A DNA stretch of 11,163 nt, from positions 1 to 11,163 of the forward strand of contig CAIVEA010000021.1 in the NCBI GenBank assembly GCA_903904765.1. The letters are read 5' to 3'. The notes under the pieces were generated by a model. That model saw nothing but the letters and a program-made list of their open reading frames with translations. It did no database searches and was not told where the DNA came from. This DNA is from an uncultured Chloroflexota bacterium. GTDB lineage: Bacteria > Chloroflexota > Anaerolineae > Aggregatilineales > Phototrophicaceae. The stretch's first letter is position 1. Each line of letters starts with the position of its first letter. Positions 2,452 through 4,653 of the stretch are shown here, one piece after another. Made by a program: the position numbers and the translations under genes.

Positions 2452-3390
2452 TTACAACCCGCTTGGCGGCTGACCGTCCTGCTTGAACAGCAAGTCCGCC
2501 ATGCGCGGGACAAAATCCGTCAAAGCCGAAAACTCGCTGGCGAACACTTGGCGCGGGTTGCCAATAATCACGGTTGGGACGGCGTTTTCGGTATGGTTGC
2601 GGTGGTCAATGGCTTCCAGATTACCATGATCGCTGGTGATAATCATCAGCCCTTCGTCATCGTCCCATGCGTCCAGTGCGCCCGCCATCACCGCATCGAA
2701 CAGTTCGAGGATGTCCACTCCCGCGCTTAACGGCCCGCGATGACCGATCATGTCCGTCACCCAGTGCGAGAAGAAGGCGAAATCGTACTGGCGCGAAATT
2801 TCGACCATTTTACGACCGCCTTCGCTGGGGGTGTACAGCGGCGAGTCGGTATAGCCGAGTTCGGAGCGCCAGCCCTGACCCGTCCAGTCTACCGCCAGCG
2901 CCGCGCCGCGATACAGGTCATCTTCGGTCATCAGCGGCAGTCCGGCTTCCAGCACTGCCTGCTGATAACTGGCGGGCAGGTGCTTGCGGCTGTTGATACC
3001 CTGATGAAAGCGCGGCGGGTAGGCTTCGATGAGCGCGGCTGTTCCGCCGTGCGCCACCACTTGCTTGAAGAAATTATCTTGCGCCAGTAACTCGCGGATG
3101 GCGGGGTTGGGCTTAGGGCCGTAGTGTTCCCCGATCATTTGCGGGATATTGCGCCCGGTGAGGATGGCAGCTTGCCCGCTGGCGCTTTGCGGACGGCCTG
3201 CCACACCCAGACAGGCATCGGTGGGGATGAACACGGCGCGTTCGCTGTGCTGTGTACCGATTCCGGCCAGCCAGCGGTGGCCATTGGTCAGGCTGTGCAG
3301 GGTGGGCAGATGGGCGGCAGCAAACGGGTTAGTGGCGGGGTCGTCCGCGCCTAGCCCGATGCCATCCAGAAAGATCATCAGAATGTGCAT
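2452..3390 (-). CDS. Alkaline-phosphatase-superfamily metalloenzyme (iPGM/phosphopentomutase-like)
   Basis: A 312-aa protein of the metalloenzyme superfamily that includes cofactor-independent phosphoglycerate mutase, phosphopentomutase and alkaline phosphatase. Visible two-metal site elements are FLDGIGLG near residue 8 (Asp9), a likely nucleophile loop QSASGQAAILTGRN (68-81), VTDMIGHRG (211-219, Asp213 and His217), SDHGN (253-257) and HTEN (266-269). It is shorter than phosphopentomutase and bacterial iPGM and lacks recognisable iPGM domains, so its substrate cannot be named; a phosphoryl-transfer or hydrolase role on a small phosphate ester is a family-level inference. The ATG directly abuts the TAA of the selenoprotein gene (TAAATG), which implies translational coupling. 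No signal peptide is seen, so it is probably cytoplasmic. Confidence 0.8.
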   Translation of the reverse strand: MHILMIFLDGIGLGADDPATNPFAAAHLPTLHSLTNGHRWLAGIGTQHSERAVFIPTDACLGVAGRPQSASGQAAILTGRNIPQMIGEHYGPKPNPAIRELLAQDNFFKQVVAHGGTAALIEAYPPRFHQGINSRKHLPASYQQAVLEAGLPLMTEDDLYRGAALAVDWTGQGWRSELGYTDSPLYTPSEGGRKMVEISRQYDFAFFSHWVTDMIGHRGPLSAGVDILELFDAVMAGALDAWDDDEGLMIITSDHGNLEAIDHRNHTENAVPTVIIGNPRQVFASEFSALTDFVPRMADLLFKQDGQPPSGL

Positions 3391-3894
3391 TTAAGAACCG
3401 GATGCCTCTGGCGCACGGGTCGCCTGTCCTAGTTCGTCATCTGAAGGGGGCGAATGTGATCGCCAGACCTCATCTCCACTGGCATCGAACAGAACGAACT
3501 CCGGTGTGAATTTGAATCCGTAGCGTTCACGCAAGGTGCGTCCAGAATCGGTGTGGATGTCCACCCGCAAAATGTTGAAGCTGCCGTCTAGACGCGCTGC
3601 CAGCGCATCAACCGCCGGTTTCGCGGCGGTGCAGCCCAGTCAGTATTGACTGAAAAACTCCACAAAGGTCGGCTTGCCGTTGCCGATCAAAGCCGCTGCT
3701 GCCTCCGTGCTGCTGACATCACTGACGGTCTGTCGCAGCGCCAACCCCGCGCCGCCGAAGATGAGCGCGAGCAGAGCGATCACCAGCCCGATCATGCGCC
3801 GTTTCAGCCCGACCACGCGCATCACGCCGATGGCCACCACGATGAGAACGAGCAGCGCCCACACGAATGAATACTGGTTGAATATCGCGGTCAT
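3391..3894 (-). CDS. Membrane-anchored thioredoxin-like selenoprotein (UxxC), UGA at 3640-3642 read as selenocysteine
   Basis: Read through one in-frame UGA, this is a 167-aa thioredoxin-like protein. Two hydrophobic segments (about residues 10-28 and 34-53) flank a KRR loop (31-33). By the positive-inside rule both termini and the redox domain face outward. The domain begins with KPTFVEFFSQY (74-84). Sec85-Leu-Gly-Cys88 replaces CxxC, followed by the active-site helix to about 102, strand NILRVDI (107-113), and cis-Pro131 in FKFTPEFVLFD (127-137). Without the UGA the product is an 85-aa membrane stub lacking the fold, and the downstream 82 codons have no start of their own. A SECIS-like hairpin follows the UGA. 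The ATG overlaps the TGA stop of the MBL gene (TGATG); a GTG one codon upstream (3895-3897) is possible. Expected role: thiol-disulfide or peroxide chemistry at the outer membrane face. Alternatives are a nonsense mutation or a base-call error. Confidence 0.85.
3611..3630 (-). promoter_or_regulatory. Candidate bacterial SECIS hairpin downstream of the Sec UGA
   Basis: In the minus-strand RNA, ACCGCCG (3624-3630) pairs perfectly with CGGCGGU (3611-3617), a 7-bp stem closing the 6-nt loop CGAAAC (3618-3623). The stem begins 9 nt and the loop 16 nt after the UGA, and the second loop base is G. Published descriptions of bacterial SECIS elements call for an apical loop of 3-14 nt, a G among its first two bases, and 16-37 nt between UGA and loop. 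This hairpin meets all three, with spacing at the lower limit. A weaker lower helix (GC with GC across a 4-nt bulge) may extend it. Its expected partner is SelB with Sec-tRNA; neither gene is in the window. Confidence 0.7.
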
Positions 3895-4559
3895 CACGAA
3901 TTAGCCTGTCGTTGGATGTAATCCAGTAAAAACGGGTTTGTCTGACGTTCGCGCCCGATGGTGGTGATGTCCATGTGACCGGGCAGCACGCGGGTATCAT
4001 CCCCTAGCGGGAGCAACTGCTCGAAGATGGAGCGCATGAGCAGGTCGTAATCACAACCGGGCAGGTCGGTGCGTCCGATGCTGCCTGCAAACAGGCAGTC
4101 GCCACCAAAGACCAGCTTGCCCTCCGGCATGTAGAAAGCGATATGACCGGGGGCGTGACCGGGTGTGAAACGGGTTTCCAGCCGGATGGCATCCAGCGTC
4201 AGGGTTTCCGGTTCGGAGGTGAGCAGGCGATCCGGTTCTGCCGCTTCGGGGAACAGTCGTCCGGCGATGCGGAGTCCGGTCTGCGGCAAGTTTTTGAGCA
4301 ACGGAAGCGAATCGCAGTGAATGTAGAAGGGCGCACCGGTGATGGCTTTCAGATCGGCACTGGCGAGGACATGATCGAAATGAGCATGGGTCGCCAGAAT
4401 GAGCTTGATCGTCCAACCCGCGTCCTGCGCGGCTTTGTGGATGTACTGAGCGTTATCTACGGGGTCAATGACCAGCGCCGAGCCAGTATCCGTATCGGCC
4501 ACGAGGTAACAGTGGGTGGCGGCTAGCCCTAGCGTGAATTGTTTGATCTCGATTGACAT
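3894..4559 (-). CDS. MBL-fold metallo-hydrolase (glyoxalase II/YcbL-like)
   Basis: A 221-aa metallo-beta-lactamase-fold hydrolase of the short hydroxyacylglutathione-hydrolase-like group. Metal-site motifs are complete: THAHFDH (57-63, with H58, H60, D62, H63), TPGHAPGH (132-139), GGDCLF (152-157, D154) and LPGH (192-195, H195). It lacks the C-terminal substrate domain of classical glyoxalase II, so it probably hydrolyses a small thioester or related substrate with two metal ions; the natural substrate is unknown. The frame is open upstream to a GTG at 4634, but homology begins at MSIEIKQFTLG, so the ATG at 4559 is chosen although its Shine-Dalgarno (AGGG, 3 nt spacing) is close. The TGA stop overlaps the selenoprotein ATG. 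It could act in thiol or persulfide metabolism with that redox partner (inference). Confidence 0.88.
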   Translation of the reverse strand: MSIEIKQFTLGLAATHCYLVADTDTGSALVIDPVDNAQYIHKAAQDAGWTIKLILATHAHFDHVLASADLKAITGAPFYIHCDSLPLLKNLPQTGLRIAGRLFPEAAEPDRLLTSEPETLTLDAIRLETRFTPGHAPGHIAFYMPEGKLVFGGDCLFAGSIGRTDLPGCDYDLLMRSIFEQLLPLGDDTRVLPGHMDITTIGRERQTNPFLLDYIQRQANS

Positions 4560-4596
4560 GAACCCTACCGCAGCTTGTCCGATGATGTCCGCGTGA

Positions 4597-4602
4597 ATTG
4601 TA
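4597..4602 (-). promoter_or_regulatory. Possible -10 element upstream of the MBL hydrolase
   Basis: TACAAT on the minus strand lies 37 nt before the chosen ATG (4559) within the 94-nt gap after murJ, and would start transcription near 4590. No good -35 hexamer is found 16-18 nt upstream (candidates read AACGCA to CGCACT). It may be a weak internal promoter allowing the MBL-selenoprotein-metalloenzyme-flavin reductase genes to be expressed apart from murJ. Low confidence. Confidence 0.3.
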
Positions 4603-4653
4603 CCCCATTCTACGTTAGAGTGCGTTGGAAGCACGTCAGAAGTGAGACAAATT

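What the first reader, a model, noticed from the sequence alone, without database searches (positions are those of the whole stretch)
3391..3894. Hidden selenoprotein: membrane thioredoxin with Sec in place of the first active-site Cys
An in-frame UGA (3640-3642) falls exactly at the first position of a thioredoxin CxxC motif, giving Sec-Leu-Gly-Cys. The frame continues for 82 codons that complete the fold (helix, strand NILRVDI, cis-Pro in FTPEFVLFD). The reading frame then stops with TAA directly against the next ATG, so operon spacing makes sense only for the long form. Automated annotation would report an 85-aa membrane stub and lose the catalytic half. UGA is a true stop in three neighbouring genes and Trp is UGG throughout, so this is site-specific recoding. 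Sec in UxxC thioredoxin-like proteins is known in bacteria; a two-TM anchored version in this gene context is new to me.
Basis: partly seen in the sequence, partly recalled or inferred. Interest (0 to 1): 0.92.

Follow-up and report, generated by a model that had tools for sequence, protein, structure and literature searches.

The report
Hidden selenium-containing membrane thioredoxin
A gene that ordinary annotation would cut in half at a stop codon very probably reads that codon as selenocysteine to make a membrane-anchored thioredoxin, and it belongs to a widespread selenoprotein family of Anaerolineae bacteria that I did not find described.

Summary
On the minus strand, ATG 3894 to TAA 3391 is a 167-codon frame with one TGA (3640-3642) at the first active-site position of a thioredoxin domain (Y-U-L-G-C). 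Selenocysteine is strongly supported. All 93 aligned homologues have Cys there. Of 166 family loci, 109 (window included) have TGA at that codon and 57 TGC/TGT. The closest relative, L001, shares the TGA and the order of all 11 window genes; its genome holds selA, selB, selD and tRNA-Sec. A 49-nt block across the UGA is identical in both: 15 of 15 degenerate same-residue codons match, 48 of 92 elsewhere. Across the family a hairpin after the UGA covaries in TGA genes, hardly in Cys genes. AlphaFold gives two membrane helices plus a thioredoxin fold; charges suggest the redox domain faces outside. UxxC thioredoxin is a known selenoprotein kind, so this is a new variant: a membrane family with a TGA form in 95 of 396 sampled class genomes and repeated Sec/Cys switching. 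The window's genome is not held; nothing was tested at the bench.

The parts
3391..3894 (-). Gene for the 167-aa selenothioredoxin (ATG to TAA, UGA at codon 85 read as Sec)
3640..3642 (-). UGA codon at the first active-site position (Sec85)
   Evidence: TGA at this column in 109 of 166 family loci, Cys codons in the other 57
3631..3633 (-). TGC for the resolving Cys88 of U-L-G-C
   Evidence: Cys in 94 of 94 rows of A1 and in 109 of 109 TGA loci
3600..3648 (-). 49-nt block identical in the window and L001, from codon 83 to codon 99; putative bacterial SECIS region
   Evidence: 15 of 15 degenerate same-residue codons identical here, 48 of 92 elsewhere
3611..3630 (-). Best-scoring hairpin in the block (ACCGCCG-CGAAAC-CGGCGGU; loop 16 nt after the UGA, -11.8 kcal/mol)
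   Evidence: meets the bSECIS constraints read in PMC13188914, but is not at the place of the family hairpin
3600..3618 (-). Alternative hairpin CCGGC-GGUUGAUGC-GCUGG that ends where the conserved block ends
   Evidence: read by eye from the sequence; energy not computed
3811..3870 (-). Transmembrane helix 1 (residues 9-28)
   Evidence: AlphaFold helix and hydrophobic sequence
3736..3801 (-). Transmembrane helix 2 (residues 32-53)
   Evidence: AlphaFold helix and hydrophobic sequence
3418..3708 (-). Thioredoxin domain (residues 63-159)
   Evidence: Pfam, AlphaFold block pLDDT 86-96 over residues 61-160, Foldseek
3502..3504 (-). Pro131 of FTPEF, at the cis-Pro place of thioredoxins (cis-Pro role recalled)
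   Evidence: nearly invariant column
3894..4634 (-). Upstream neighbour: MBL-fold hydrolase (its stop overlaps the start of the selenothioredoxin gene)
2452..3390 (-). Downstream neighbour: metalloenzyme-superfamily protein, ATG directly after the TAA

Best explanation
The gene encodes a membrane-anchored thioredoxin whose first active-site residue is selenocysteine. UGA 3640-3642 is decoded by the standard bacterial SelB / tRNA-Sec route, directed by an RNA element in the coding sequence just after the UGA. The protein has two transmembrane helices joined by a short positively charged cytoplasmic loop, and a thioredoxin domain on the outer face of the membrane. It probably acts as an extracytoplasmic thiol-disulfide (or peroxide/persulfide) reductase, with Sec85 as attacking selenolate and Cys88 as resolving thiol, re-reduced by a CcdA/DsbD-type membrane protein. 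Shown from sequence: the gene anatomy, the conservation of the codon, the machinery in the closest relatives, the constraint at RNA level; the fold is predicted. Inferred: Sec incorporation in this very organism, the membrane orientation, the electron donor. The substrate is a guess.
For: Cys at this column in all 93 homologues aligned. TGA there in 109 and Cys codons in 57 of 166 unique loci, nothing else. L001 and L015 have TGA with the same frame continuing. Codons after the UGA to the next stop: minimum 49, median 80 in 108 loci, two of them cut by the locus end. selB in G001 and G015, tRNA-Sec with anticodon tca, selA in both, selD in G001, itself with an in-frame TGA. All 11 window genes lie in the same order and orientation around L001. 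Synonymous freeze over 49 nt, p = 1.6e-4, absent in one Cys pair of like divergence. Family hairpin: 89.8% of cells paired and 103 two-sided changes in 105 distinct TGA sequences, against 44.7% and 32 in 57 Cys sequences. Genomes with the TGA form have selB or tRNA-Sec in 88 of 95, Cys-only genomes in 11 of 27. Structure: (Sec modelled as Cys). Orientation: inter-helix loop net charge mean +3.39, minimum +2, n = 94. A DsbD_TM-type protein over the cut-off in G001 and G015 and in 7 of 8 genomes examined, though it is also found in 10 of 14 control genomes.
Against: The window's own genome is not held, so selA-D were not seen in it. selD was not found in G015. The window's downstream fold is not unusually stable over 45 nt (z -0.4; z -2.2 over a 71-nt stretch), and its hairpin is not at the family position. 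42 of 109 TGA genes fail my simple bSECIS hairpin scan, L015 narrowly (-7.0); 10 of 57 Cys genes and 20% of 434 control stretches pass it. The synonymous freeze is not seen between window and L015 (4 of 12 against 23 of 65). Seven TGA genomes show neither selB nor tRNA-Sec; incomplete assembly is possible but untested. Sec machinery is common in the class anyway (selB 314 and tRNA-Sec 295 of 396), and against all other genomes the association is only p = 0.014. No test was corrected for kinship. Function and donor rest on inference.
Confidence: 0.93

Rival explanations
1. The UGA is a true stop and the gene is a decayed pseudogene or makes an 84-aa membrane stub.
For: A plain ORF call ends there. 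A second, short ENA contig encodes a 92%-identical stretch that also stops right after FFSQY (P0095).
Against: 109 of 166 loci with TGA at exactly one column and none with TAA or TAG there; downstream frame kept; synonymous freeze across the UGA between window and L001; operon contacts on both sides.
Confidence: 0.03
2. UGA is recoded, but as cysteine or another amino acid and not Sec (for example by a tRNA-Sec charged with Cys, or by another suppressor tRNA).
For: The homologous residue is Cys. Non-Sec recoding of UGA by variant tRNA-Sec systems is recalled from the literature and was not checked here.
Against: tRNA-Sec with anticodon tca, selA and selB in the two nearest TGA relatives, selD in G001. 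Of the family carriers that lack both markers, 16 are Cys-only and 7 have the TGA form, although TGA carriers outnumber Cys-only ones 95 to 27. UGA ends neighbouring genes, so recoding is site-specific.
Confidence: 0.03
3. TGA is an assembly or sequencing error for TGC/TGT in this record.
For: The window's clade is mostly Cys (26 of 30 rows).
Against: The same TGA occurs in L001, L015, L191 and L193 and in 104 further loci, and here inside a block under RNA-level constraint.
Confidence: 0.01
4. It is a selenothioredoxin, but the redox domain faces the cytoplasm and works as an ordinary thioredoxin tethered to the membrane.
For: In the wider family a canonical trxA often lies close upstream (25 loci, 21 of them TGA), which fits a cytoplasmic thioredoxin partnership. 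The window itself has no trxA neighbour.
Against: Positive-inside rule (recalled): the loop between the two helices is net positive in all 94 aligned sequences and the segment after helix 2 averages -0.76, which predicts the C-terminal domain outside. N-terminal charge could not be used (two rows).
Confidence: 0.15

Closest known systems
Sec-containing thioredoxin (UxxC, PF00085; listed as experimentally verified in Table 1 of PMC13188914)
   Same: Thioredoxin fold, Sec in place of the first Cys of CxxC, UGA with a bacterial-type RNA element after it
   Different: Here the domain carries an N-terminal membrane anchor and faces outward (inferred). The residue before the site is mostly Tyr, Thr or Phe and never Trp in the 109 TGA loci. 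It scores far below the NCBIfam thioredoxin cut-off (27.5 against 96.8 bits)
TlpA / ResA / DsbE type extracytoplasmic membrane-anchored thioredoxins (recalled), and UGC-containing TlpA selenoproteins (listed in PMC13188914)
   Same: Membrane-anchored, outward-facing thioredoxin-like domain; selenoprotein forms exist
   Different: dsbE model 18.7 bits against cut-off 123.15, TlpA model 14.9 against 230; the closest folds are classical thioredoxins; motif is UxxC, not UGC
Canonical TrxA
   Same: beta-alpha-beta-alpha-beta-beta-alpha order, redox motif at the helix start, cis-Pro place
   Different: No membrane anchor in TrxA (recalled); 16-26% identity to the 50 PDB matches shown, nearly all thioredoxins or thioredoxin fusions

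Membership tests
Bacterial selenoprotein (general) | In-frame UGA aligned with a redox Cys of homologues | tested here: met
   Cys in all 93 aligned homologues; 109 TGA and 57 TGC/TGT of 166 loci
Bacterial selenoprotein (general) | Independent homologues with the same UGA | tested here: met
   108 loci besides the window
Bacterial selenoprotein (general) | selA, selB, selC, selD in the same genome | tested here: inconclusive
   Window genome not held. In the closest relative G001 all four were found; in G015 selA, selB and selC but not selD
Bacterial selenoprotein (general) | bSECIS hairpin (3-9 nt loop, 4-16 bp stem, G in first two loop places, 16-37 nt spacing, energy at or below -7.5; as read in PMC13188914) | tested here: met
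   Window hairpin -11.8, spacing 16, loop 6; 18-20% of controls pass too, so this alone is weak; supported by the frozen 49-nt block
Bacterial selenoprotein (general) | Selenium shown in the protein | not testable with these tools
   Needs 75Se labelling or mass spectrometry
Thioredoxin (PF00085) | Score above the Pfam gathering score | tested here: met
   31.9 bits against 23.5
Thioredoxin TrxA (NCBIfam TIGR01068) | Score above the curated cut-off | tested here: not met
   27.5 against 96.8 bits; 0 of 10 further family members over this or any other listed cut-off
DsbE / TlpA family | Score above NCBIfam cut-offs (TIGR00385, NF047696) | tested here: not met
   18.7 of 123.15 and 14.9 of 230 bits

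The most novel reading that the evidence does not exclude
An outward-facing, membrane-bound selenothioredoxin is a main reason why Anaerolineae keep the selenocysteine machinery. It would account for genomes such as Anaerolinea thermophila UNI-1, reported to encode a Sec elongation factor but no selenocysteine-annotated dehydrogenase (passage of PMC4959059; that genome was not examined here), and its UGA-linked hairpin also shapes the protein sequence beside the active site.
Probability: 0.35. Interest if true: 0.68.

Novelty: new variant of a known kind. Interest (0 to 1): 0.6.

Why it matters
About a quarter of the sampled genomes of the class (95 of 396) carry a TGA form of this family, whose catalytic half is lost if TGA is read as stop. 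Recognising it gives these bacteria a widespread redox selenoprotein, probably on the outer side of the membrane, and a candidate reason for their SelB genes. It also offers a natural set of Sec/Cys switches (17 changes at fewest on one quick tree, 9 forced by well-supported branches), in the window's clade at a syntenic locus, in which the cost and benefit of selenium can be studied.

Tried and rejected
One search translated a wrong frame (start off by one) and was discarded. The viral-contig scan found no relative. Rfam found nothing at gathering score in the window; lower scores were not tried. A search with the 84-aa stub for other truncated members gave only the window's own stub and P0095; P0095 looks chimeric (foreign N-terminus, PF06055 label, 602-nt contig) and its stop codon could not be read, so it is weak support only. 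The plasmid search returned only ordinary thioredoxins (17 records, all Burkholderia, under 60% identity). Fold energy of the window alone did not settle the SECIS question. A pseudogene, a read error and a non-Sec recoding were considered and are given as rivals. The tree is a quick one with a simple model (LG+G4, 62 of 163 inner branches poorly supported); direction of change was not inferred.

Rows dropped before counts: P0095 was left out of the alignment (93 of 94 proteins used); canonical thioredoxin hits in flanking genes, recognised by DFWA (21; excluded); duplicate loci of one genome. One match (G363, L125) was listed with '1 TGA' but has TGC at the site and is counted as Cys. The family search used a profile of Cys members with TGA read as Cys, so members lacking a residue like Cys there could score a little lower. 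The class search drew 396 genomes from a larger group, and the tRNA-Sec search over them used stricter filters that lose weak matches.

Papers: PMC13188914, section 7 parts 1 and 2 of 3 read plus passages; PMC9312934, PMC1088965, PMC1794560, PMC12013277, PMC4959059 passages only; all others search listings only. No paper describing this family appeared in the listings of searches; the library holds open-licence PMC papers only and no preprints.

Full report
What is there. The gene lies on the minus strand: ATG at 3894, an in-frame TGA at 3640-3642 (codon 85) and TAA at 3393-3391, with the next gene's ATG at 3390 and the previous gene's stop overlapping the start. The read-through protein of 167 aa matches Pfam Thioredoxin (E 1.4e-7, residues 69-143).

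The codon. The protein search returned 94 proteins; 93 were aligned with the window (P0095 left out) and all 93 have Cys at the UGA column. A scan of species genomes gave 24 loci. The window's nearest relative among them, L001 (67% identity), and L015 have TGA at the same place with the frame continuing. A search of 396 genomes of the class of G001 gave 127 places in 122 genomes; 97 places have TGA at exactly this codon and 30 have a Cys codon. With the order-level search (49 of 154 genomes matched) and the first loci, the unique set is 166 places: 109 TGA, 43 TGC, 14 TGT, none other; the resolving residue is Cys in all 109 TGA loci. After the UGA the frame runs on for a median of 80 codons, minimum 49, in 108 loci (two cut by the end of the locus); 40 of these 108 end in TGA as the final stop, so recoding is site-specific. 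That the class is Anaerolineae is read from the record titles of the loci; L001's own title says only Chloroflexi.

The machinery. The window's genome is not held. L001 is a close stand-in: all 11 window genes occur there in the same order and orientation, with 67% (this gene) to 96% (ffh) identity. Its genome G001 has full-length selB (376 bits; cut-off 242), tRNA-Sec (68.6 bits; gathering 47) with anticodon tca, selA (over two contigs) and selD, the last with an in-frame TGA of its own. G015 has selA, selB and tRNA-Sec; selD was not found. In the class sample, 88 of 95 genomes with the TGA form have selB or tRNA-Sec (72 both, 7 neither), against 11 of 27 Cys-only genomes (Fisher p 3.7e-8, not corrected for kinship). 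The background is high: selB 314 and tRNA-Sec 295 of 396, and against all other genomes p is only 0.014. Of ten further TGA-bearing genomes of the order, nine have selB and nine have tRNA-Sec; each has at least one.

The RNA element. Between window and L001 a 49-nt block from codon 83 to codon 99 is identical: 15 of 15 degenerate same-residue codons agree there, 48 of 92 elsewhere (p 1.6e-4). One Cys pair of like divergence (L002/L003) shows 3 of 15 against 35 of 83, and window against L015 shows no excess (4 of 12 against 23 of 65). This is the best evidence for an RNA signal in the window's own gene. The published bSECIS constraints were read in the legend of Fig. 2 of PMC13188914. A simple hairpin scan under them passes 67 of 109 TGA genes, 10 of 57 Cys genes and 20% of 434 control stretches from the TGA genes. 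The window passes (-11.8 kcal/mol, loop 6 nt, spacing 16 nt), as does L001; L015 narrowly does not (-7.0). In the wider family the hairpin sits at +19 to +37 after the UGA, with loop GUG, GUU or GUC in 106 of 109. In 105 distinct TGA sequences 89.8% of cells of the six inner pairs are standard pairs, with 103 two-sided changes; slid versions give 31-53% and column shuffles 77.8% on average. In 57 Cys sequences the figure is 44.7%, with 32 (shuffles 42.3%). The pairing shows through in the protein: CCC-AUC-GUG-GAU-GGG reads PIVDG and CCU-GUC-GUG-GAC-AGG reads PVVDR (sequences). Mean folding z in the 45 nt after the codon is -0.95 for 99 TGA genes, and +0.16 (30) and -0.33 (20) for two sets of Cys genes; in the 45 nt before the codon it is -0.49 for the TGA genes.

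Structure and orientation. AlphaFold on the 94-row alignment, with Sec as Cys, gives mean pLDDT 88.3: helices 9-28 and 32-53, then a thioredoxin domain with residue 85 just before helix 86-102. The closest solved folds are ordinary thioredoxins, as are the closest solved sequences. The loop between the two helices has net charge +2 to +6 (mean +3.39, n 94) and the segment after helix 2 averages -0.76. By the positive-inside rule (recalled) the loop is cytoplasmic and the redox domain outside. The N-terminal charge could not be used (two rows only). A DsbD_TM-type protein that could supply electrons scores over the cut-off in 7 of 8 genomes examined, G001 and G015 included, and in 10 of 14 control genomes; that it is the donor is inference.

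Evolution. On a quick tree of the 166 domains the Sec/Cys label needs 17 changes (shuffled mean 47.4; at least 9 forced by well-supported branches). The window pairs with L001 (support 99) inside a 30-row clade of 26 Cys and 4 Sec rows (98), the four being the window, L001's gene, L015 and L191. Since gene order is largely shared among the loci of this clade, Sec and Cys forms occupy the same locus. Direction was not inferred. Four genomes (G017, G150, G333, G506) carry both a Cys and a TGA member.

Known or new. UxxC thioredoxins are an established selenoprotein kind, and the 2026 review tabulates 119 families and subfamilies (section 7, parts 1 and 2 read). No entry there is named as a membrane-anchored or Anaerolineae thioredoxin, and words beginning Chloroflex or Anaerolin do not occur in its main text. 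No NCBIfam model reaches its cut-off for the window protein or for ten diverse members. The 2006 survey counted three selenoproteins in Chloroflexi (passage of PMC1794560). Subseafloor Anaerolineales were reported with Sec-annotated formate dehydrogenases, and A. thermophila UNI-1 with a Sec elongation factor but no Sec-annotated dehydrogenase (passage of PMC4959059); this family is a candidate to fill that gap, not tested here. I file it as a new variant of a known kind.

Noticed in passing
L215 (G001), L216 (G504), L217 (G448): selD of three relatives has a single in-frame TGA in the match (CAGUASKL or CAGUAAKL), so SelD is probably a selenoprotein too in these genomes.
   Followed up: partly
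flanks of 25 loci of the wider family, e.g. L138, L113, L153: A canonical trxA (WCGPC type) lies close to the family gene in 25 loci (21 TGA; 24 of 25 hits upstream on the same strand); a CsoR-like regulator is near in 14 loci (13 TGA) and a glutaredoxin/thioredoxin reductase-like protein in 8 (6 TGA). The last two names are by eye, from no family search.
   Followed up: partly
P0095 (602-nt ENA contig): A 128-aa protein with a stretch 92% identical to the window's stub that stops at the same residue, fused to an unrelated N-terminus; probably a chimeric contig.
   Followed up: no
G017 (L040, L067), G150 (L053, L100), G333 (L050, L097), G506 (L202, L210): Genomes that carry both a Cys and a TGA member of the family.
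   Followed up: no
G147, G149, G197, G208, G335, G341, G389: Genomes with the TGA form in which neither selB nor tRNA-Sec was found; gaps in assembly or missed genes not checked.
   Followed up: no
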